Source: Prinia subflava
Lineage: Eukaryota > Chordata > Aves > Passeriformes > Cisticolidae
Length of the DNA: 64,000 bases
Reading direction: 5' to 3'
Assembly: GCF_021018805.1 (NCBI RefSeq)
Contig: NW_026960608.1
Span: 930,001-994,000 of the forward strand
This document shows positions 15,474 through 48,850 of this stretch, in pieces. Position numbers and translations under genes: made by a program. Below the pieces are notes generated by a model. That model made no database searches. It was given only the letters and a program-made list of their open reading frames with translations, and was not told the DNA's origin. The first letter of the stretch is position 1. Every line of letters starts with the position of its first letter.

Positions 15474-15872
15474 TGTTGCTGAGAACAGTTAAAGATCGGG
15501 GACTAAAGAACAGGGTCTGACCCAATGTGGGTATATCACACCTTCTTCCCTTTATTCTTTGAGATGGCGGGTTAAATACAGACAGACTGGTTGACAAGAA
15601 CAGGTGCATTCTGATAGGCAGTGAGAATAGAGAAGTATGCAAACAATCTAGAGTTAAGGCAGCTACGGAGTTTCAGTGTAATTACTTCTATTCTGTAAAT
15701 GTCCATACCTTAACACATTCCTAGTACCAGATAAGTTTATCTGGTACTACGTATGTTGGATGTTTGAGGCCTACTAGGCCCAGGCCTGAGGCCTAGTTCG
15801 GCCTGGTTTGGAATAGCTCAAATCCCATCCCCCAGCATATCATGCCCACGACTTCTGAGAAACTCGGTTACA
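15474..15872 (-). repeat. class II provirus 3' LTR
   Basis: 399 bp, minus strand TGTAACCGAG … CTCAGCAACA. It matches 27680-28078 with no difference noticed. The last codons of env run into its U3 up to 15818. Confidence 0.95.
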
Positions 15873-16444: not shown

Positions 16445-17074
16445 TCATTTGACTCGTTGGGTTGGTTGAGACAATCCTAAAACCTGATGAATGGTAGGAG
16501 CAAACAATGTCAATTTACTGAAATAACACGGTCCTCCTATACCTTTTTGGGGCATTGCAGACCAGGCTCTATCTCCACAGATGAGAAAGATTCCTGGTGG
16601 CAATTTCTTAGCAACACCTGTTAATGGTGCCACAGACTTGGTCCAGTTGCTGCAATATTCAGTGTAATTGTAGTACAATGAGGAATGGGGAGATAACCAA
16701 GTGCTGTCATATTTCAGCTGTTGCTTGTTTATGATTAACAAAGTGGAATTTATGATAAAATGTCCAAAAATTAAACAGTAATTTCGTGGCACAGAGCCCA
16801 GAAGATCAAGTTCCTGAGGCTCTGCACTAGTAACTTTAAGATTTTGTGCAATGACAGCAGCTTGTGCTCCTAAAACACTTTTTGAATTAATTTGAATTCG
16901 AGACCAGGCTCTGAACTCTGTCATGGAGCTCACTGGAACTCCAATCAAACAAGTTCGAAAAGGATTAGATGGTGTGGCCAAAGACAAACAAAAGGTATCT
17001 TGCTTGTTTTGGTTGGCCCACGTGACCCACATATTTTGCCTTGGGTCGATGTCAAGCATTCCTGATCCCATTTC
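16445..17074 (-). pseudogene. env: Env surface (SU) segment, interrupted at both ends
   Basis: The open frame is about 208 residues with several N-glycosylation sequons (NST, NYT, NWT) and cysteines, as expected of a retroviral surface subunit. It is short compared with alpharetroviral SU. It ends at a TGA (16445-16447) where the SU/TM cleavage site should lie. At its 5' end it is cut off by the LTR element inserted at 17075-21555, which falls within about the first 20 codons of the env frame. The start-proximal piece remains on the far side, near 21562-21620. The segment is therefore a broken gene. Confidence 0.75.
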
Positions 17075-17499
17075 TATCGAGATTTCTCCCGATAACTCCG
17101 AGGGTCCAGCCAGCGGAGTAATGGCTTAATAAAATAGCGAGACGGCTTCCCAGGATATGCTTTGTAAAATAAAGTTTTAATAACAGGAAAAATAATAAAC
17201 GTTACAAAATGAAAAGAGATAAGCCGAGCACAGTGTACCAAGCACAGCTACACAGGCTAAGGCACTCCCAAAAAGCCTCGTGTACCCTTATGCAGGCCCT
17301 TTAGTACTCGATGGTCTAGGTGGGCTTTTTTGGCTCTTGGCCCAATGAGATGGACACTAGACTTTGAGGTGCACTTCTAAAGTCCTATCACTGTGTCTGT
17401 GCTGGGACCAAGCCAATTACAGCGAGCAGGCTATAGAAAATTCTAGCTTCACTTCCTTATATGGAAACACCTGCTCGGGTACAGAAATGCACGACTACA
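17075..17499 (-). repeat. nested element 3' LTR
   Basis: 425 bp, minus strand TGTAGTCGTGC … AAATCTCGATA. The outer end is TG…TA, not the usual TG…CA. No difference noticed from the 5' LTR. Confidence 0.9.
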
Positions 17500-19422
17500 T
17501 CTCACCCTGTAAAATCATATTAAAAAAAGAAAAAAAAAGAGAAATAGTTACTTTGAAAAAATTCTCACTTTTGTTCATAATTGTGATTGTGTCAATGACT
17601 TATTGTTATTTAACAATTTGGTTTATAGTTAAGCTGTAGTTTTATGGATTACAAAATTTTAAATTTGGTACTTTCTTTTTATTAGCCAATCTTTTAAATT
17701 TAATATTTAGTCTCAAATTACATATGAATCTTATTTTACTTTTTGTTTGGAGAGATTTTTTCAAGTGAACTATATTTTCTTTTTCTTCTACATAAAGATT
17801 TGATAATAACTTTTAACATACAACAACGAACAATTTTGACATGACAATAATAACTTCAAAAATTTTAACAGTGCAACTTTTATAAAACTTAAGTCTCTGC
17901 TTCAAACGTATTTCAGTGTCTATAGTGCTGGGCTGTGTCAGAATGCAGAAGTCTTTTTGAAGACACAGTCTGTGGTCACTCTGGGTCCTTTTGCATGCTC
18001 TTCTTGAGGTGTGTTCTGCTCTCCTTTCTTCTTTTGTAGTTGTGACTCAACTTCTTTTGCAGGAACTTTCTTAGAGTCTGTACCTGTGGAGACAAACAAA
18101 ACCTCTCTCCCTGCCATAAAGGACAGGCTCTAAAATTTGTCTTGTTTTCAGAATTTTTATGAATATGAGAGATTAAAAAACATATATATAACTTTGTTCA
18201 ACCTTTCTATAATAGAAAGCACTACGCCCTTTCCCATTTTTATCTTTTAAAGAGCATTTTTAGCTGTTTGTGTGTTTTTTAACAATAGATTGGCTTTTGA
18301 ATGAATTAGTTATAATATGTGGTAAATTTGATATGTTGAAAAACTTCTGTAATTTTAAGAACTGTACATTTAGGAATGAGAAATGTTTACAAGAGATGTT
18401 TTAATTGTCTTTTTTGGTCTTTTTCTCCTTTATGTGTTGAGGTAGAACATACTTTAAAAAGTGTGTGGTTAGACAAGTGAATTTGTTTGAATTGTTTAAA
18501 TGGTTGATATTGCATGATACTTGTTTTTAATTTTGAGGGTTAACTTTTGCTGCTATTGATGGTGCAGTTAGTGTTTGGTAGTTTGGGCATGGTTGCACAA
18601 TTGTCTTAATTTGACTTTGAGATATATGCGACACTTTTTACAAGAGCTGATGTATTTTGATGTATGGTTAAAAGTTTGCTGTTACCTTGCTATTTGCTAT
18701 AAAACTTAGGAGTTTAGTGTTTGCTTTAACATGTGACACAATACAGTTGCTGTTGAGAAAAAAGGAAAAAGATTAGTATTTTAATGTGAATTTACAATTG
18801 ATTAGAACTTTTTCTTGAGAGGTCTCTGCTCCCTCTACTAAACTTGCAACATAAAAATTTGTAAACATAAAATATGAACTTTGAAAAACATGTAGACAGT
18901 TGTTCTTTTTTAGTTTTGAGATATAGTTTTTAGACTTTCTTAAAATCTGATTTTTATTTTTTGGTGTTAGGATTTTACTACATGGTTATGAGATTTTAGA
19001 TTTTCTTGACTTATTTATAAAACGAATTTTTTTTAGAGGAGTATGAATTTTGAAAGGTTTTCAATTTAATTATAGAGATGAATTTAATAATTTTTTTTTG
19101 TAATATTTATACGGGCTATTTTTAAAAACTTTTGAATTTTGAATTAACTATTTCAATTAAAGATATGAGCAAGCAAAATATTTTTGCAGAATCTTTTCCT
19201 GTAAAGGAAAAATTATTTAGGAATTCGTTTTTATAATTAGTTTGGAATATAAATTTTTTGGGCAAGTTATTACAATCTTCTTGCTTAATTGACAAAACAG
19301 AAAAGAAAAACCTTTTGTTTTGGAATTACTTGGTAGTCTTTTTCAGATCTTAATGAAAAAATTAACTTATAAAGTTCTGGGTTTCTTGTTAAAACTGCAA
19401 AATAAAAGAATAGGTCAGGGTT
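17500..19422 (-). other. A-rich 3' region of the nested element
   Basis: On the minus strand this 1.9 kb is A-rich with almost no long frames. Two acceptor-like sites stand out: a pyrimidine tract with TTTTATTTTGCAG ending at 19395, and TTTGTCTCCACAG ending at 18084. Together with the donor before gag they suggest a spliced transcript. The only coherent frame found is the 59-codon ORF at 17938-18117. Confidence 0.6.
17938..18117 (-). CDS. 59-residue candidate accessory ORF of the nested element
   Basis: ATG to TGA on the minus strand, 59 codons: MAGREVLFVSTGTDSKK at the start, then a Lys/Gln/Glu-rich hydrophilic middle (VESQLQKKKGEQ) and the end CVFKKTSAF. A splice-acceptor-like site (TTTGTCTCCACAG) falls after codon 11, so the same frame could be a 3' exon. 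It stands out as the only balanced coding-like stretch in an otherwise A/T-rich 1.9 kb. I know no homologue. It could be a residual env or gag fragment, or chance. Confidence 0.35.
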   Translation of the reverse strand: MAGREVLFVSTGTDSKKVPAKEVESQLQKKKGEQNTPQEEHAKGPRVTTDCVFKKTSAF

Positions 19423-20745
19423 TTAAGGTATTTTGAGCCTGCTGCTTTGGTGGATTCTTGTGGTGGTTTTCATGACAGTCTTCTTTTGGACGAAGTCTAC
19501 TTTGTATCTTGGCTGCTGGAATTGAACTGTTAGCTGTTTCTGTTCTGTTTTCTTGGAGGGTTTTAGACGATGATAAACTTTCACTGCTTTAGTCTTGCTC
19601 TGTCCTTGTTTTTGTTTTGTTTTGGTCTCCTGTCGCCAGAGCCGGGCTGGCTCTGGGGTGCTGGTTTCTTTCCTTATGTTGTGCCAGGGATCTATGCTGG
19701 CTGATGAATCCTCTGAATCATCAGAGAAACTGCAGGACGTGTGGGAAACCTTCTGATTTTTCATCGGAGTTTGTTTACATTTCTCCGGCATGGGCGCCGC
19801 CATCTTGGGGAGGGCAAGTTCCGGGATGTCACATCCGGTTCCCACGCTCGTCACAGCCAGGGCGTGTCTGTCCAGGCTGTGGGTGGCAACCCGGGGCGGT
19901 GCCCGAGGCTTGGGACCGCCCATGGAGGGGGAGCCTCCTGTGCTGGAGTGGGAGGAGCTGAGCGACACATCAGATGGGGCGTGCCGCAGCGTCGGGCTGT
20001 ACTGAGCCCGCCCACGTGGAGCTACAGTTTCTGCCTCAGAGATGGGGAGAATTCCACGTTTTTCATTGTTCTGTGAGCCCGCGCTTTCAGGGCTTTGTTC
20101 AAAACTCGCGCGCTCAAAATTAACGGACCGGGATCGCCCGTATCTCGTACTGGGTGACTGAGGGGGTGGGGAGGGCGGTTGGAATGGAACCCTTGCCTGC
20201 TTGGCCACGGCTGGCACAGGTCCCACTCCGGGGCTCTGAGGACGGCTCGGGGGAGGGCTTTGAGCCCTTCCCTGCCTGCTTCTCGGGAGTAAATCAAACC
20301 GGTTTTTTCTGGGACTTGGGGCATCAGAACTTGGATTTTTATCTTCATGTCTAAGGTGAGCAGGAGCCTTTTTGCATTTTACTTTCTGGGCTCCTTTTTT
20401 ATGGTTGCTTTTAGAGGCTTTTCCCAAGGTTTCTCTTTCTGCAGTTTCAAGTGTTTTTTCACTGCTGAGCCTTTCGCCTTCTTCTGTTACAAAGTCTAAC
20501 ACAGTTTTAAAGATGGGTCTTAATTTTAACACAGATTTTTTCTTTGAATTATACAACTTCAATCCTATTTTGTCCCAAAATTCCACTGTTACTGTTTCAG
20601 CTGTATTAGTGTCCGGATACTTCTTATAGACCCATTTCACAAGTTTTTTAAGTTCTTTCCTCTCAAACTTATAGTCTTGAATAGTCAGTTTATAATTAAA
20701 ATAACAAAAGGTGTCTCGCTGTTCTACGGATTGCCGGGTCCCCAT
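19423..20745 (-). CDS. Gag-like protein of the nested element (matrix domain plus disordered tail)
   Basis: 440 codons from an ATG followed by GGG, so the protein begins MGTRQS and carries a potential N-myristoylation glycine. Residues 1-100 resemble a betaretroviral matrix domain (basic helices, VEFWDKIG motif, KSVLKLRPIFKTVLDFV). The remainder is Pro/Ser/Arg-rich and looks disordered, with a basic C-terminus (KTMKTTTRIH). There is no major homology region, capsid fold signature or zinc knuckle, so it is not a full Gag. An in-frame GTG two codons upstream is a less likely start. A strong donor (CTG|GTGAGT) ends 10 bases before the ATG. The protein could associate with membrane and helper Gag; that role is inference. 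Confidence 0.8.
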   Translation of the reverse strand: MGTRQSVEQRDTFCYFNYKLTIQDYKFERKELKKLVKWVYKKYPDTNTAETVTVEFWDKIGLKLYNSKKKSVLKLRPIFKTVLDFVTEEGERLSSEKTLETAERETLGKASKSNHKKGAQKVKCKKAPAHLRHEDKNPSSDAPSPRKNRFDLLPRSRQGRAQSPPPSRPQSPGVGPVPAVAKQARVPFQPPSPPPQSPSTRYGRSRSVNFERASFEQSPESAGSQNNEKRGILPISEAETVAPRGRAQYSPTLRHAPSDVSLSSSHSSTGGSPSMGGPKPRAPPRVATHSLDRHALAVTSVGTGCDIPELALPKMAAPMPEKCKQTPMKNQKVSHTSCSFSDDSEDSSASIDPWHNIRKETSTPEPARLWRQETKTKQKQGQSKTKAVKVYHRLKPSKKTEQKQLTVQFQQPRYKVDFVQKKTVMKTTTRIHQSSRLKIP

Positions 20746-20749
20746 TGTC

Positions 20750-20756
20750 ACTCACC
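20750..20756 (-). promoter_or_regulatory. splice donor immediately before the nested gag
   Basis: Minus strand CTG|GTGAGTGAC, a near-consensus 5' splice site, then the gag ATG at 20745. Splicing here would remove gag and join the leader to downstream acceptors near 19395 or 18084. Confidence 0.65.
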
Positions 20757-21110
20757 AGAATGGCTCTTGTGATCTCCCGGCAGCTCTTGGTTGTCTCCGA
20801 CTCTCTCAGGTCACTCGGTGATTAGCTGTTCTCTGTCTCCAGCTCTGCTAGACTGCAGCTTCTCTCTTCTAAAGAGTAATCCACCTTGTACCAGAATCGG
20901 TGTCCGGCAAAGACCCCCTCTCACCGGTATAGGGGTTCAGTCAAAAGGCTCCCTCTCAGCCTTTTTGACCCAAAAATGTGTTTTTATTTTCACGACCAAA
21001 AAACCACCACGAGCTCGCTTTTAAAAAAACGAAACCAAGAGCAAAATGGCCTAGCTGAACGTGAGGGCTCTCTGTCAGCAAACTTCGACTCAGTTACCCT
21101 AATGTAGGGT

Positions 21111-21128
21111 CCGTGTTCGAAGGCGCCA
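21111..21128 (-). promoter_or_regulatory. primer-binding site of the nested element, variant Lys type
   Basis: Minus strand TGGCGCCTTCGAACACGGAC starts two bases after the 5' LTR. It resembles the Lys3 primer site of the surrounding provirus but has two extra Ts after TGGCGCC and one further mismatch. Confidence 0.7.
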
Positions 21129-21130
21129 TT

Positions 21131-21555
21131 TATCGAGATTTCTCCCGATAACTCCGAGGGTCCAGCCAGCGGAGTAATGGCTTAATAAAATAGCGAGACG
21201 GCTTCCCAGGATATGCTTTGTAAAATAAAGTTTTAATAACAGGAAAAATAATAAACGTTACAAAATGAAAAGAGATAAGCCGAGCACAGTGTACCAAGCA
21301 CAGCTACACAGGCTAAGGCACTCCCAAAAAGCCTCGTGTACCCTTATGCAGGCCCTTTAGTACTCGATGGTCTAGGTGGGCTTTTTTGGCTCTTGGCCCA
21401 ATGAGATGGACACTAGACTTTGAGGTGCACTTCTAAAGTCCTATCACTGTGTCTGTGCTGGGACCAAGCCAATTACAGCGAGCAGGCTATAGAAAATTCT
21501 AGCTTCACTTCCTTATATGGAAACACCTGCTCGGGTACAGAAATGCACGACTACA
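21131..21555 (-). repeat. nested element 5' LTR
   Basis: 425 bp, matching 17075-17499. The primer site follows on the minus strand. Confidence 0.9.
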
Positions 21556-21561
21556 CATTTC

Positions 21562-27679: not shown

Positions 27680-28078
27680 TGTTGCTGAGAACAGTTAAAG
27701 ATCGGGGACTAAAGAACAGGGTCTGACCCAATGTGGGTATATCACACCTTCTTCCCTTTATTCTTTGAGATGGCGGGTTAAATACAGACAGACTGGTTGA
27801 CAAGAACAGGTGCATTCTGATAGGCAGTGAGAATAGAGAAGTATGCAAACAATCTAGAGTTAAGGCAGCTACGGAGTTTCAGTGTAATTACTTCTATTCT
27901 GTAAATGTCCATACCTTAACACATTCCTAGTACCAGATAAGTTTATCTGGTACTACGTATGTTGGATGTTTGAGGCCTACTAGGCCCAGGCCTGAGGCCT
28001 AGTTCGGCCTGGTTTGGAATAGCTCAAATCCCATCCCCCAGCATATCATGCCCACGACTTCTGAGAAACTCGGTTACA
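27680..28078 (-). repeat. class II provirus 5' LTR
   Basis: 399 bp, no difference noticed from the 3' LTR. It contains an AT-rich promoter region, and a palindrome-like block (ccagataagtttatctgg) near 27932-27949. Confidence 0.95.
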
Positions 28079-30104: not shown

Positions 30105-33100
30105 AGAGAGAGGGTACACCTCACGAGCTGACCTGTGGTCCTTCCTGCGTGTCCATGGGGAAGACATGGGAAGGTAGGATGGGAAACCCACTTCTGTTCT
30201 AGCAGCACGGGTGCGTGAGCTCAAGGAGAGAAACACTAACCGAGGGAGTTCCACTAGAATGAAAGTAGCCTCAGCCTCCCAGGACCAGGCTGTCAGGTAT
30301 TACAGAAATGAGGATGCTCCGTCAGATCCCCTTGAAAGAACCTCTACTGTGTATGCACAGGAAGAGAGTAGCAACCGGTGCTAGAGGGGCCCTGCCTCTA
30401 GCCAGGAAGAGGCACGAGAAAACGGAGTCTGTTAGAATGTGTAGATTCGATGGCCTGGCACATCAGAGCCACAGAAATATGAAGCGTTAGTCGATACTGG
30501 TTCGCAGTGTACCCTAACGCCATCAGGACATGTGAGAACAGAACCTATTTCCATTGCTGGTGTGACAGGGAGATCACAAGAATTGACTTCTGTTAGAAGC
30601 CAAGGTGAGCCTGACTAGGAAAGAGTGGCAGAAACATCCAATTGTGACTAGCCCAAAGGCTCCGAGTATTCTAGGCATAGACTTTCTCAGGAATAGCTTT
30701 TACAAAGACCCTAAAAGACTCAGGTGGGCTTTTAGAATAGCTGCTGTAGAAGCAGAGGGCATTAAGAAATTGAACACCTTGCCTAGATTATCAAAGAACC
30801 CATCTGCAGTAAGACTCCTAAAAGTAGAAGAACAACGAGTACCTGTTGCCACCTCGACGGTGCATCACCGGCACTATCAGACGAATTGAGATGCTGTGAT
30901 CCCCATCCACAAGATAATCCAAGAGCTGGAGAGCCAAGAGGTAGTCAGCAAAACCCACTCACCCTTCAACAACCCTATTTAGCCTGTGCGCAAGTCTGAT
31001 AGAGACTGACTGTAGACTATAGTGCCTTGAATGAAGTAACTCCACTGCTGAGCGCTGCTGTGCCAGACATGCTAGAACTCCAGTACAAACTAAAGTCCAA
31101 AGCAGCGAAGTGGTATGCCACAATCGACATCGCTAATGCATTTTTCTCCATTCCTCTGGCTGCAGAATGTAGGCCTCAGTTTGCTTTCACCTGGAGGGGC
31201 GTGCAGTACACCTAGAACCGACTGCCCCAAAAGTAGAAGCACAGTCCCACCATCTGCCATAGACTGATCCAGGCTGCACTAGAAAAAAGTAAAGATCCAG
31301 AACATCTACAGTACATTGATGACATCATTGTGTGAGAGAACACAACAAGGGAAGTGTTTCAGAAAGGAGAAAAGATCATCCAGATTTTCCTAGAAGCTAG
31401 TTTTGCCATCAAAAAGAGCAAAGTCAAAAGACCTGCCAAGGAGATCCAGTTCCTGAGAGTAAAGTGAGAAGATAGGCAGCGTCAGATTCCCACTGAGGTC
31501 AACAATAAGATCACTGCGATGTCTCCACCGACCAGCAAGAAAGAAACGCAAGCTTTCCTAGGCGCCATAGGCTTTTAGAGAATGCACATTCCTGAGTACA
31601 GCCAGATTGTGAGCCCTCTCTACCTGGTTACCTGCAAGAAGAATGATTTCCACTGGAGCCCTGAACAGCAACAAGCCTTTGCCCAGATCAAGCAAGAGAT
31701 TGGTCATGCAGTAGCCCTTAGTCCAGTCAAGACAAGACCAGAAGTAAAAAACATGCTCTACTCTGCAGCCGAGAACCATAGCCTGTCCTAGAACCTTTGG
31801 CAGAAAGTTCCTAGTAGGACTCAGGGTCGACCACTAAGATTCTAGAGTCAGAGCTACAGAGAGTCTGAAGCCAACTACACTCCCACAGAGAAAGAAATCT
31901 TGGCTGCCTATGAAGGAGTTCAAGCCACCTCAGAAGTGATTTGCACAGAAGCACAACTCCTCCTGGCACCCCGACTACCAATGTTGGGATAGATGTTCAA
32001 AAGAAAAGTTCCCTCTACCCACCACGCCACAGACACCACATAGAGCAAATAGACTGCCCTCATCATTTAGTGCGCCCGTATCAGAAACCCAAATCGCCCT
32101 GGGATTTTAGAAATAATCACAAACTAGCCAGAAAGTGAAAACTTTAGTCTCACTGAAGAAGAAAAACAAGAGTGACACGTGCCGAAGAAGCTCCACCGTA
32201 TAATCAGCTGCCAGCAGAAGAAACACACTATGCTCTTTTCACTGACAGTTCCTGTCACATCGTAGGGATAAAACAGAAGTAGAAAGCAGCCGTATAAAGC
32301 CCCACACGACAGGTTGCACAAGCCACTGAAAGAGAAGGTAGATCAAGTCAACTTGCAGAACTCAAAGCTATTCAATTAGCCCTAGACATTGCTGAGAGAG
32401 AGAAGTGGCCAAAGCTCTACCTCTACACTGATTCATAGATAGTAACCAGTGCTCTGTGGAGTTGGCTAAAAAAGTAGAAAAAAGCCAACTGGCAGCGTAA
32501 GAGAAAACCAATCTAGGCTGCTGATGAGTAGAAAGACATTGCTGCTCGGGTAGAGAAGCTACCTGTAAAAGTCCGCCATGTAGATGCCCATGTCCCCAAG
32601 GGTCGGGCTAATGAGGAACGCCGAAACAATGAGCAAGTAGATCAAGCTGCTAAGATAGAAGTGTCCAAAATAGACTTAGATTGACAACACAAGGGAGAGT
32701 TGTTCCTAACTCAATAAACCCATGATGCCTCAAGTCATCAGAGCAGAGATGCCACCTATAAGTAAGCACGACACCAAGAGGTAGATCTAACCATAGACAG
32801 CATTTCTCAAGTTATCCGTGACTGTGAGACGTGTGCTGCAATCAAGCAAGCCAAGCGAGTGAAGCCCCTATAGTATGACAGGCAGTAGTCCAAATACAGG
32901 TATAGAAAAGCCTAGCAAATTGACTACATCACCCTTCCCCAAACCCACCAAAGCAAGCGCTACGTACTGACCATAGTAGAAGCCACCACTAGATAGCTAA
33001 AAACCTACCCTGTGCCTCACGCTACTACCCAGAACACCATCCTAGGCCTAGAAAAGCAAGTTCTGTAAAGACATAGCACCCCTGAGAGAATCGAGTCAGA

Positions 33101-33500
33101 CAATGAAACCCATTTCAAGAACAGCCTTATAGCAACCTAAGCTAAAGAACATAGCATTGAGTAAGTGTAACATATTCCTTATCACGCACCAGCAGCTGAG
33201 AAAGTTGAACAGTGCAATGGCCTGCTTAAAACCACCTTGAAAGTACTGAGTAAGAAGACTTTCAAGAACTGGGAGATTAATTTAGCAAAAGCCACATGGT
33301 TAGTGAACACTCGAGGTTCCACCAACCGAGCAAGCCCTGCCCAATCTGAGCCCCTGAGAACAACAGATGGAGATAAGGTTCCAGTAGTACACATGAGAGG
33401 TATGCTGGAAAAAAACTGGATTAATTCTGCCTCCAGCAAAGACAATCCCATCCGTGGGGTTGTCTTCACTCAGGGACCAGGATGCACCTAGTGAGTGATG
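30048..33500 (+). pseudogene. pol: degraded protease-pol of outer provirus with Trp-to-stop changes
   Basis: Landmarks are readable although the frame is repeatedly stopped: protease DTG at 30493-30501, reverse transcriptase YIDD at 31312-31323, an RNase H TDS near 32240, integrase DCETC near 32820, QIDYI near 32920 and a DNE motif near 33100. Many stops fall where the family has Trp, for example TAG at 31213 and 31234, TGA in AAAGTGAGAAG (about 31466) and TAG at 31576 and 31842. Comparison with the second copy at 46332-48850 shows mostly G-to-A change. QIDYI and the 5-bp duplication support class III. It cannot encode an active enzyme. Confidence 0.85.
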
Positions 33501-44599: not shown

Positions 44600-47500
44600 T
44601 TATCCACCTCTTATTCTATTATCATCTGTATCATATCTAAATCAATAAACTCAATTTTTATATATATACAAACACAATGAAACCTTATACACAATTCTCA
44701 CTTAAGATTAGGTTTCCCTGTGGCACACAACAGGTTTCTCTATCTTTCTGCATTACTCACCAAGTATAACCAGGTCTTTGAGCAAAAACAATCCCACGGA
44801 TGGGTTTGCCTTTGCCTGAGACGAGATTAATCTAAACAGTCTTTCTTAAAATACCTTTCATGTGTATCACAGGGACTTTATGTCCATCCACCATGTGCAA
44901 GGGTTCAGACTGGGCAGGACCAGCTCAACTGATGAAGCCTCGGGTGTTGACCATTGTCATGGGTTGGCGCTGGCCAAATGCCAATGCACCCATGAGTGTA
45001 TATTTTCCCTAATGAACTACTGTGAGATGTGGTCAAGAACAGAGCAGAGCAGGCCTAAAACTTGAAATAGAAAAGAAAACTTTATTAAACTACATAACAA
45101 CAGAGAACAGAAAAGAAAAGAAAACCTAAACACCCAGAAACAGAAATGAAAACCTCCCAGAACATTTCTTCTCCTCCCCCAATTTCTATCCCTTACATGC
45201 TCAAACAGTTAACACTTGCACATTACCCTCATCTGACTTACTTAAACCAAAACCCTGGGTTCCCAATCAAAGTCATCATCACTCAAAAAAACCAGTCTTC
45301 AATCCATCCAGGGAGAGAGGAGTCTCGCACCACAGACCCCCCACAGGAAACACAGGTCTACCCTCCCATGTTCCCATTTCACCCATGGCACCACCTGGAG
45401 AAGTCTGCCTGGGTGACACCCTCCTTTCCGTGTCCAGTGCTCTCACCACCATCCGTGGACCAAAACCGCATATAGGGCTCTTTTAAGGATGTTCGGCCAA
45501 GTACCAAAAACCAGCCCTCTTCTCATACTGGGACAAGCACTCCCCCCCACATTTACCCCTGGGGCCAAGGGTTCCAAGAACAGACCTCAAAGTCTTTGGT
45601 TTTGAGCCAAATGCATCCACCCAAATACAGTCTTATTTATGTTCAGGAGAATTCAGGGTCCATCTATGGCTAACATTACGCAAGAAAAGTCCAGCCCAAA
45701 AGCCACTCCTCTTCATCTCTGCCATCGAGGGGGTCCTTTTCATCGTCCTTTATCATCTCTGTCCCAGGGTCTCTCTCTTCTGAAACCACCAGCCATGAGA
45801 ATCAATGTCTGGGAATAGTTTTCTTCTGCCTCAGGAAGAGTTAAAAGCTTCTGGCTCCCGGCAAGGCCACAGGCCCAGGCACTTGCAGGCTTCGGCAACT
45901 CCCACATGCAGCAGCTTGGCACCTTCTCCCTGGGCAGGGGGGGAGACGGGATGAGGAGGGGGGGGACTGGGATGGGGGGACAGAAGGCACCTCCAAAGTT
46001 CTCCACCCCTCCATCCTGGATGGGGCTGGCTTAGGTCCAGTCCCATTCTCTCTCTTCCCCCCCATACGGGCCTACCTCAGCCTGGCCACCTGGCCCCCCT
46101 CCCCCACCCAGCCTGGTAAGCTGGGCAGGGGGGGAGGAAAAAGATGCTCCTCTCCTGAAAGTGGAGCCAGAAAGAGAAAGTCCCTCTGGGAGTCCTTGCT
46201 TTTAACCCCTTGTGTCCTCAGAGGCGTGTCCAACCTCTCAGTGGCCACCGAAGGTGCCAACATTCAAACCTGACCACTGATTGGTTTGACCTCAGCTTCC
46301 TGAAAAACTCACTTCCCCTCAAACCAGGACAACCATCCAGGTGGCTTTTGCTAAGTTCATTTCTCAATTCTTGAAGGTCTCTCTGCCAAGTGCTTTCAGG
46401 GTAGTCGTAAGTAGTCCATTGCACTGTTCAACTTTCCTGGCAGATGGTGCATGATAAGGGATGTGATATATCTATTAAATACCATGTTTTCTGGCCCAGG
46501 TGTTTATAAAGCTTTTCTTGAAATGGGTCTCATTGTCCAACTCGATTCTCTCAGGGGTGCCATGCTTCCACAGGACTTGCTTTTCCAGGCCCAGGATGGT
46601 GTTCTGGGCAGAAGTGTGAGGCACAGGGTAGGTTTCAAACCATTTAGTGGTGGCTTCCACCATGGTCAGCACGTAGCGCTTGCCTTGACGGGTTTGGGGA
46701 AGGGTGATATAGTCAATTTGTCAGGCTTCTTTATACTTATATTTGGACTACCACTCGCCATACCATAGGGGCTTCACTCACTTGGCCTGCTTGATTGCTG
46801 TACACATCTCACAGTCATGGATAACTTGAGAAATACTGTCTATGGTTAGGTCCACCCCTCGGTCTTCTGCTCACTTATGGGTGGCATTTCTGCCCTGATG
46901 ACTTGAGGCATCATGGGCCCATCGAGCTAGGAACAACTCTCTCTTATGTTGTTAATCTAGGTCTATCTTTGACACTTCTATCTTGGCAGCTTGATCTACT
47001 TGCTTGTTGTTTCAGTGCTTTTCATTAGCTCAACTCTTGGGGACATGGGCATCTACATGGCGGACTTTTACAGGTAGCTTTTCTACTCGAGCGGCAATGT
47101 CTTTCTACTCATCAGCAGCCTAGATTGGTTTTTTCCTACGTTGCCAGTTGGCCTTTTTCTACCTTTCCAGCCAACCCTACAGAGCATTGGCTACTATCCA
47201 TGAATGATTGTAGAGGTAGAGCTTTGGCCACTTCTCTCTCTGCGCAGTGTCCAGGGCCAGTTGAATAGCTTTGAGTTCTGCAAGTTGACTTGATCCACCT
47301 TCTCTTTCAGTGGCGCCATACAGCTGCTTTCTACTTCTGGTTCATCTTTACAATGCGACAGGAGCTATCAGTGAAAATAGCTGATTATATGGTGGAGCTT
47401 CTTCGGCATGTATCACTTGCTTTTGTTCCTCTTCATTGGTGAGATCAAAGTTTTTACCTTCCAGCCAGCTGGTAATTACTTCCAAAATCCCAGGGTGATT

Positions 47501-48850
47501 CGGGTTTCTAATACAGGTGCGCTGAGTGATGAGGGCAATCTATTTGCTCCATGTGGCATCGGTGGCGTGGTGGGTAGAGGGAACTTTTCTTTTGAACATC
47601 TACCCCAGCACTGGCAGTCAGGGTGCCAGGAGGAGTTGTGCTTCTGTGCAAATCACTTCTGAGGTGGCTTGAACTCCTTCATAGGCAGCCAAGATTTCTT
47701 TCTCTGTGGGAGAGTAGTTGGCTTCAGATCTTTTGTAACTTTGGCTCCAGAATCCCAGTGGTCGGCCTCGAGGCTCACCAGGCACCTTCTGCCAAAGGCT
47801 CAAGGACAGACCACGGTTCCCGGCTGCAGAGTAGAGCACATTCTTCACTTCTGGTCTCATCTTGACTGGGCCAAGGGCTACCGCATGAGCGATCCTTTGC
47901 TTGACCTGGGCAAAGGCTTGTTGCTGTTCAGGGCCCCAGTGGAAATTGTTCTTCTTGTGGGTAACCAGGTAGAGAGGGCTCACAATCTGGCTGTACTCAG
48001 GAATGTGCATTCTCCAAATGCCTATGGTGCCTAGGATAGCTTGTGTTTCCTTCTTGTTGGTTGGTGGAGACATTGCAGTGATCTTGTTGATGACCTCAGT
48101 GGGAATCTGAAGCCATCCATCTTGCCACTTTACTCTCAGGAACTGGATCTCCTTGGCAGGTATCTTGACTTTGCTCTTCTTGGTGGCAAAACTAGCTTCC
48201 AGGAGAATATGAATGATTTTCTCTCTTTGCTCAAGCACTTCTCTTGCCGTGTTTCTCTACACAATGATGTCATCAATGTACTGTAGATGTTCTGGAGCCT
48301 CACCCTTTTCTAGTACAGCCTGGATCAGTCCATGGCAGATGGTGGGGCTGTGCTTCTACCCCTGGGGCAGTCAGTTCCAGGTGTACTGCACGCCCCTCCA
48401 GGTGAAAGCAAACTGAGGCCTGCGTTCTGCAGCCAGAGGAATGGAGAAAAATGCATTAGCGATGTCGATTGTGGCATACTACTTTGCTGCCTTGGACTCC
48501 AGCTGGTACTGGAGTTCTAGCATGTCTGGCACAGCAGCGCTGAGCAGTGGAGTCACTTCATTGAAGCCACGATAGTCCTCAGTCAGTCTCTATTCTCTGT
48601 CAGACTTGCGCACAGGCTAAATGTGGCTGTTGAAGGGTGAGTGGGTTTTGCCGACTACCTCTTGGCTCTCTAGCTCTTGGATTATCTTGTGGATGGGGAT
48701 TACTGCATCTCGATTCGTCCGATACTGCCAGTGATGTACTATCGAGGTGGCAACAGGTACTCTTTGCTCTTCTACTTTCAGGAGTCTTACTGCAGATGGG
48801 TTCTCTGACAGTCCAGGCAAGGTGTCCAATTTCTTAATGCCCTCTGCCTA
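44600..48850 (-). pseudogene. pol: partial pol of second class III provirus, split by a solo LTR
   Basis: Same pol as 30770-33550 in opposite orientation: 44690-44954 is the 3' end and 46332-48850 the rest. The longest open piece (47618-48238, minus) covers the thumb/connection and early RNase H with its Trp codons intact. Elsewhere stops replace Trp, some at the same positions as in the first copy (for example 48356-48358). The copy ends abruptly at 48850; gag and the 5' LTR are absent. Confidence 0.85.
44950..46336 (-). repeat. solo LTR, family E (copy 2), 1377 bp, duplication accat
   Basis: Spans 44955-46331, flanked by accat (44950-44954, 46332-46336). The pol text is continuous across it once it is removed. 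Orientation is taken from the reversed AATAAA-like block near 45082. It is unusually long for a bird LTR. Confidence 0.9.

What the first reader, a model, noticed from the sequence alone, without database searches (positions are those of the whole stretch)
17069..21561. A non-autonomous retroelement with its own matrix-only Gag, possibly an undescribed parasite of class II retroviruses
The element has LTRs, a primer site, a splice donor, a 440-residue Gag-like gene and no enzymes. The protein keeps a myristoylatable matrix domain but replaces capsid and nucleocapsid with a long Pro/Ser/Arg-rich tail. It may co-assemble with a helper's Gag and ride its polymerase. Keeping a long open gag under such conditions implies that the protein does something.
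Basis: partly seen in the sequence, partly recalled or inferred. Interest (0 to 1): 0.85.

Follow-up and report, generated by a model that had tools for sequence, protein, structure and literature searches.

The report
Hitchhiking retrovirus relic in a bird
A songbird-like genome carries close to ninety or more copies, many of them young, of a stripped-down retrovirus that keeps only the first part of one gene and most likely borrows the machinery of a rarer, fuller relative in the same genome; it is a bird example of a kind of genomic hitchhiker already known from mice, cattle and koalas.

Summary
Confirmed: window 17075-21555 (minus strand) is a 4,481-bp LTR element with identical 425-bp LTRs, an exact 6-bp target duplication, a primer-site-like stretch, a splice-donor-like stretch and a 440-codon ORF. 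At least 87 places in this genome match the ORF past residue 362. Fuller relatives also exist: 18 places encode all or part of a betaretrovirus-like capsid and zinc knuckle. One partner copy, read in part, shares U5 end, primer site and leader at 97%. So the Pro/Ser/Arg stretch is mostly the parent Gag's matrix-capsid spacer; only the last 78 residues are foreign. Residues 1-100 are a retroviral matrix by sequence and fold. Mobilisation in trans is inferred; the partner's pol was not read. A protein function is not supported: N:S of variants is near the noncoding expectation, and four copies seem to share a frameshift in matrix (from coordinates). Against that, 50 of 66 anchored copies keep the frame open. 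Copies are recombinant mosaics. Verdict: a new avian member of the ETn/MusD-like (C/D-type) kind; the ORF is probably inherited ballast plus cis RNA.

The parts
17075..21555 (-). whole non-autonomous LTR element (4,481 bp)
   Evidence: homologous full elements in 17 of 20 fetched loci
17069..17074 (.). target-site duplication CATTTC (left)
21556..21561 (.). target-site duplication CATTTC (right)
21131..21555 (-). 5' LTR of the element (begins TG, ends TA)
17075..17499 (-). 3' LTR, identical to the 5' LTR
21108..21128 (-). primer-binding-site-like TGGCGCCTTCGAACACGGACC; 4 of 18 copies have the shorter Lys-type form instead
20746..21130 (-). leader; its first 236 nt plus the adjacent U5 end are 97% identical (295/303 columns) to one full-Gag partner copy
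20750..20755 (-). splice-donor-like GTGAGT just before the ATG; string kept in 17 of 18 copies
19423..20745 (-). 440-codon ORF (truncated gag)
20446..20745 (-). residues 1-100: matrix domain with MGxxxS start
   Evidence: BLASTP to Passer domesticus and Parus major Gag N termini; fold matches RSV, MMTV and M-PMV matrix
19660..20445 (-). residues 101-362: Pro/Ser/Arg-rich spacer inherited from the parent Gag; predicted mostly disordered
   Evidence: (places matching 1-362 with 762-766-codon frames)
19426..19659 (-). residues 363-440: Lys-rich tail not found in the parent Gag
17500..19422 (-). 1,923-nt A/T-rich noncoding segment of unknown origin (A 41%, T 31%)
17500..17509 (-). CAGGGTGAGA before the 3' LTR (candidate, rather poor, polypurine tract), kept in 17 of 18 copies

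Best explanation
It is a young, multi-copy, non-autonomous derivative of a class II (betaretrovirus-like) endogenous retrovirus. Everything after the matrix and spacer part of gag was replaced by about 2.2 kb of unrelated sequence. Its transcript keeps the parent's LTR end, primer site and leader. It is most likely packaged, reverse transcribed and integrated by Gag-Pol made by the rarer full-Gag partner copies in the same genome (C/D-type or ETn/MusD-like trans-complementation). Shown: structure, copy number, target duplications, shared 5' end, the partner's matrix-spacer-capsid-zinc-knuckle Gag, and recombination among copies. Inferred: the partner's pol and the trans step. The 440-codon ORF is mainly inherited: leader plus matrix coding sequence is probably kept as cis RNA (packaging), and the protein is not needed in cis.
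For: Identical LTRs and exact target duplication. 17 of 17 further full copies read have exact 6-bp duplications and 0-6 LTR differences per about 425 bp. 88 of 97 rows, at 87 places, match past residue 362 into the tail. Seven rows end at exactly 362; six of these adjoin capsid hits. The partner Gag continues into Gag_p24, Gag_p24_C and a zinc knuckle; best PDB matches are 8c9m (Gag) and HERV-K Gag 6ssj. U5 end, primer site and leader shared at 97%. Only 3 substitutions of the partner over the positions compared are absent from all 18 short copies, two of them at the junction. r2 is 0.31 within 30 nt and 0.06-0.09 beyond, 0 of 2000 shuffles as extreme; recombination is also reported for the bovine C/D pair (PMC10924933 passages). 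Matrix-coding variants are depleted at both N (7 against 17.6 expected) and S (3 against 6.8), which fits RNA-level constraint.
Against: The frame is open in 13 of 18 LTR-selected copies and in 50 of 66 anchored copies, and 0 of 4 gag indel events are shared against 20 of 49 noncoding ones, so some constraint on the frame is likely. In the 37-copy set, partly chosen by protein similarity, simple dN/dS is lower (0.54; matrix 0.24; tail 0.36). The leader, a likelier packaging site, is not clearly depleted of variants (pi 0.0221 and 0.0099 against 0.0141). The low matrix diversity rests on 10 variants.
Confidence: 0.8

Rival explanations
1. The truncated Gag is a working protein: a membrane-bound matrix-spacer factor that helps its own RNA into helper particles, or interferes with the helper.
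For: Open frame in 50 of 66 anchored copies; no shared stop among the shared variants and no shared frameshift in 18 copies; simple dN/dS lowest in matrix (0.42 in 18 LTR-selected copies, 0.24 in the 37-copy set); confident matrix model with myristoylation-type start. In M-PMV the matrix-capsid phosphoprotein contributes to genome packaging (PMC1308863, abstract).
Against: N:S of shared variants, 33:14, is close to the noncoding-calibrated 2.2-2.5; in matrix S variants are depleted as much as N; four copies appear to share a net frameshift after codon 56 (from coordinates); no Pfam capsid or nucleocapsid match, no PPxY, P(T/S)AP or zinc-knuckle pattern.
Confidence: 0.13
2. The frame is kept only because early stops shorten the life of retroviral full-length RNA (nonsense-mediated decay), so translation length matters but the protein does not.
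For: Missense variants accumulate near the neutral ratio while shared frame breaks are rare: 0 of 4 gag indel events shared against 20 of 49 noncoding. In Rous sarcoma virus, constructs with a premature stop within gag have reduced unspliced RNA (PMC2925335, passages).
Against: The four copies that appear to share a frameshift; small counts (chance of 0 of 4 is 0.14); noncoding indels are partly in simple runs, which gag has less of; the ORF still ends about 2.3 kb before the element's end.
Confidence: 0.25
3. A single deleted provirus of a full-length family.
For: Full-length Gag relatives exist; the four with frames of 762-766 codons are 87-97% identical over residues 1-362.
Against: 87 places match past residue 362 into the tail; 17 of 17 read copies have their own target duplications.
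Confidence: 0.01
4. A domesticated host gene (public record P0001 is named serine/arginine repetitive matrix protein 1-like, Prinia subflava).
For: One annotated 440-residue protein, 96% identical.
Against: The ORF lies between LTRs with target duplications in the 18 copies read; residues 1-100 are homologous to retroviral matrix.
Confidence: 0.01

Closest known systems
Bovine ERVK[2-1-LTR] C-type/D-type pair (PMC10924933, passages read)
   Same: Class II; competent minority and defective majority (15% and 85% there) sharing both ends; central segment swapped; part of gag kept; pervasive recombination among copies.
   Different: D-type copies there lack intact ORFs and keep portions of env; here a 440-codon gag-derived ORF is open in most copies examined. 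Trans-complementation is supported there by population data, here only inferred.
Mouse ETn/MusD (PMC6466679, passages)
   Same: Class II non-autonomous LTR element with a competent likely progenitor in the same genome.
   Different: ETn has no coding capacity; helper dependence was demonstrated there.
Mouse IAP I-delta-1 (named in PMC10924933; details recalled)
   Same: Deleted element that keeps a gag-derived ORF (recalled) and is complemented in trans.
   Different: I-delta-1 keeps a gag-pol fusion (recalled); here no pol match was found in the element.
Koala KoRV/RecKoRV (named in PMC10924933)
   Same: Ends of the competent virus kept, middle replaced by other sequence.
   Different: Gammaretrovirus (recalled); the replacing sequence is an old piece of retroelement. 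Here its origin is unknown.
Plant TR-GAG elements (search listing only; definition recalled)
   Same: Non-autonomous LTR elements with gag coding only.
   Different: Plant retrotransposons with a gag domain; this one lacks capsid and nucleocapsid.

Membership tests
C/D-type (ETn/MusD-like) trans-mobilised ERV pair | defective member lacks enzyme genes | tested here: met
   No other sense-strand ORF of 80 codons or more inside the element except a 108-codon one overlapping gag; the 440-codon ORF has no Pfam match
C/D-type (ETn/MusD-like) trans-mobilised ERV pair | multi-copy with own target duplications | tested here: met
   17 of 17 further full copies read
C/D-type (ETn/MusD-like) trans-mobilised ERV pair | shares LTR end, primer site and leader with a fuller partner in the same genome | tested here: met
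   one partner copy read over 300 bases, 295/303 columns identical
C/D-type (ETn/MusD-like) trans-mobilised ERV pair | partner encodes gag, pro and pol | tested here: inconclusive
   Gag with capsid and zinc knuckle shown; dUTPase-like frame only at E 0.15; pol not read
C/D-type (ETn/MusD-like) trans-mobilised ERV pair | central segment swapped for other sequence | tested here: met
   homology to the partner stops at codon 362
C/D-type (ETn/MusD-like) trans-mobilised ERV pair | mobilisation in trans demonstrated | not testable with these tools
   needs cell or pedigree data
class II (betaretrovirus-like) ERV | 6-bp target duplication | tested here: met
   window and 17 of 17 further full copies; that 6 bp is typical of class II is recalled
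class II (betaretrovirus-like) ERV | matrix domain of the beta/alpha-retroviral fold | tested here: met
class II (betaretrovirus-like) ERV | partner capsid closest to betaretroviral (HERV-K-type) Gag | tested here: met
   best PDB matches 8c9m (Gag protein) and HERV-K Gag 6ssj, 32yy
class II (betaretrovirus-like) ERV | RT phylogeny | not tested
   no RT of this family was read
TR-GAG (plant) | gag domain including capsid and nucleocapsid (recalled) | tested here: not met
   no Pfam match and no zinc-knuckle pattern

The most novel reading that the evidence does not exclude
The matrix-spacer protein is an active part of the parasite: supplied in trans by many intact copies, it steers parasite RNA to, or blocks, helper assembly at the membrane. 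That would make this a retroviral defective element with its own helper-manipulating protein. The frameshifted copies would then be cheaters on a cheater.
Probability: 0.12. Interest if true: 0.8.

Novelty: new member of a known kind. Interest (0 to 1): 0.45.

Why it matters
It gives birds a clear, young case of a defective endogenous retrovirus outnumbering its fuller partner (at least 87 places against 18, from capped lists), with copies so recombined that sites more than about 30 nt apart behave almost independently. That makes it a good natural system for asking which retained parts a defective retroelement needs: leader, matrix RNA, reading frame or protein. It also shows that a public protein named SRRM1-like (Prinia subflava) is a retroelement ORF.

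Tried and rejected
A spliced 3' exon (acceptor CTCCACAG near 18085, short frame to about 17937) looked possible. It was rejected because the frame is broken or different in L012, L017, L018 and L019 and shifted in L009; it is readable in the other 13 of 18 copies.

A link to the surrounding provirus in the window: no significant nucleotide match (best E 0.045), so it is treated as a landing site and not the parent.

Origin of the 1.9-kb segment: no blastn hit at E 1e-3 in the rest of the window and the flanks of nine fetched loci (116,617 bases). A genome-wide search was not made because the element's own copies would fill a capped list. Unresolved.

Integrase-family scan (PF00665): 150 of 3,260 candidates scored, none at the partner places when I compared coordinates by eye, so it says nothing about the partner's pol. 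A single-sequence matrix fold was poor (pLDDT 57); the four-sequence alignment gave block means of 82-91 for residues 11-90. Foldseek E-values were 0.5 or worse; MMTV matrix chains took ranks 1-3 but histone-fold chains ranks 4-7. PDB search by sequence gave nothing below E 0.48. ARAGORN found no tRNA in the window.

Selection caveats: the dN/dS values ignore transition bias. The 37-copy set includes copies chosen by protein similarity, so the verdict rests on the 18 LTR-selected copies (the window plus the 17 full elements among 20 fetched; 20 of the 27 other places in the list; the 3 solo LTRs have no ORF).

Full report
What is there. On the minus strand of the window, 17075-21555 is bounded by two LTRs identical over 425 bp and by an exact 6-bp duplication, CATTTC. 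The internal part has a primer-site-like TGGCGCC stretch, a leader of 385 nt, a splice-donor-like GTGAGT next to the ATG, a 440-codon ORF, a 1,923-nt A/T-rich segment and a short purine-rich run before the 3' LTR. The ORF has no Pfam match. The element lies between the pol ORF and a gp85-like ORF of another class II provirus, with which it shares no significant nucleotide similarity.

A family, not one copy. A genome search with the LTR gave 42 rows, with 40 of 707 candidates scored. A 30-nt LTR-start pattern with up to 2 mismatches counts 396 places. Of 27 other places in the list I fetched 20: 17 are full elements of 4,461-4,493 bp and 3 are solo LTRs. All 17 full copies have exact 6-bp duplications. 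Their LTR pairs differ by 0-6 substitutions; with the window, 30 over 18 x 425, or 0.39%. With a recalled songbird rate of 2-3 per billion sites and year this is roughly 0.7-1 million years, biased young by the LTR-based choice. A protein search gave 97 rows, with 96 of 4,866 candidates scored; 88 rows at 87 places match past residue 362. Some of these are old: identities go down to 80-89%.

The parent. Seven of the 97 rows stop at exactly residue 362; six of them adjoin capsid hits. Four of the seven have open frames of 762-766 codons, one of these with a stop reported inside the match. In the one partner copy read beyond that point (L059, 1,501 bases), the frame runs on into capsid (Gag_p24 E 7.9e-27, Gag_p24_C E 1.7e-18) and a zinc knuckle (zf-CCHC_2 E 1.1e-4, below its curated cut-off); its best solved relatives are 8c9m (Gag protein) and HERV-K Gag. 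The capsid-to-zinc-knuckle piece finds 19 rows at 18 places at 76-100% identity, 10 of them over the whole piece, and everything else in the 126 rows is at 52% or less (125 of 2,675 candidates scored). The partner's U5 end, primer site and first 236 nt of leader are 97% identical to the window element. In two partner copies the distance from capsid start to a downstream LTR start is 4,922 and 4,916 nt (coordinates, computed), which leaves room for pro-pol but hardly for env. This is inference; pol was not read.

Is the protein under selection? In 18 LTR-selected copies the frame is open in 13. Simple dN/dS is 0.64 overall, 0.42 in matrix, 0.69 in spacer and 0.74 in the tail; in the 37-copy set, partly chosen by protein similarity, it is 0.54, 0.24, 0.64 and 0.36. 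This measure ignores mutational bias. Calibrated on the family's own noncoding segment, the expected N:S is 2.53 (2.31 or 2.17 if CpG sites mutate 5 or 10 times faster); observed 53:18 for singletons, with 2 stops, and 33:14 for shared variants, with none, that is, near neutral. The spacer has more variants than expected (67 N, 26 S against 53 and 21). Matrix has few of both kinds (7 N against 17.6, 3 S against 6.8), which points to RNA-level constraint, on small numbers. For the frame as such: gag has 4 indel events, none shared, while the leader and 3' segment have 49, of which 20 are shared; by itself this has a chance of 0.14. Among 66 copies found by exact anchors in matrix and matched to residue 440, 50 are open, 9 are frameshifted and 7 keep the frame but have stops; 12 of the 57 in-frame copies have net lengths changed by multiples of 3. 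Three further anchored places had no match in the capped protein list. Four of the nine frameshifted copies, on three contigs, share a net loss that starts after codon 56 (three at -8 nt, one at -11). I infer a common frameshift from coordinates and did not read the letters. If so, that subfamily multiplied with a broken matrix frame, and the protein is not needed in cis.

Recombination. Sixty frequent two-allele sites in the 18 copies show r2 of 0.31 within 30 nt and 0.06-0.09 at longer distances, where about 0.06 is expected for independent sites in 18 copies; 0 of 2000 position shuffles gave as strong a decay. The copies are therefore mosaics, as expected if transcripts of many copies are co-packaged; gene conversion between genomic copies could add to this. 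Over the 236 leader and 91 gag columns available, the partner copy has three substitutions not seen in any of the 18 short copies, two of them next to the junction. [quoted passage not shown]

How it most likely works. The element supplies an RNA with working LTRs, primer site and packaging region. The rarer full-Gag relatives, or another class II provirus, supply the particle and enzymes. The matrix-spacer ORF is inherited from the parent because the replaced part began at the spacer/capsid boundary. Keeping the leader and the start of gag fits the pattern noted for MusD/ETn, KoRV/RecKoRV and the bovine pair, where cis-effects have been suggested (PMC10924933, passage). The partial retention of the frame could reflect youth, RNA stability (in RSV, stops within gag reduce unspliced RNA: PMC2925335, passages) or a real protein role (in M-PMV the matrix-capsid phosphoprotein contributes to packaging: PMC1308863, abstract). 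The data do not separate these.

Novelty. The kind is known. A bird family of this kind was not found in five searches of the held library, which lacks most subscription journals; of the listed papers I looked at passages of one on chicken LTR elements (PMC5006616). The one public protein match is a 96% identical record named serine/arginine repetitive matrix protein 1-like in Prinia subflava, so the genome is probably a songbird close to or identical with that species; this was not proved.

Noticed in passing
window 21108-21128 and fetched copies: Two kinds of primer site coexist: 4 of 18 copies have TGGCGCCCGAACAGGGAC, the same as the surrounding provirus, and 14 of 18 have forms with two extra T. 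No tRNA fitting the longer form was identified; since primer sites are renewed from the tRNA at each cycle (recalled), its persistence is unexplained.
   Followed up: partly
window 15474-15773 and 27680-27979: Surrounding provirus with LTR stretches 100% identical over 300 nt and gag, dUTPase-protease, pol and gp85-like env ORFs: also young, and interrupted by this element.
   Followed up: no
L012, L019, L017, L018; 3' segment positions about 1400-1486 (window about 18023-17937): Two strongly diverged alternative haplotypes of a patch of about 85 nt in otherwise near-identical copies, as if patched from other templates.
   Followed up: partly
G000:C45:395497-427288: Four integrase-domain hits 10.4 to 10.7 kb apart, two on each strand: a local duplication or inversion of proviruses.
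   Followed up: no
P0001 (public record): Protein named serine/arginine repetitive matrix protein 1-like [Prinia subflava] is 96% identical to this retroelement ORF: a gene-annotation error.
   Followed up: yes
window 30752-33304 and 46332-48847: Long inverted repeat pair, 85-91% alike in three pieces over about 2.5 kb, with an ORF of 206 codons at 47618-48238 that looks pol-like by eye.
   Followed up: no
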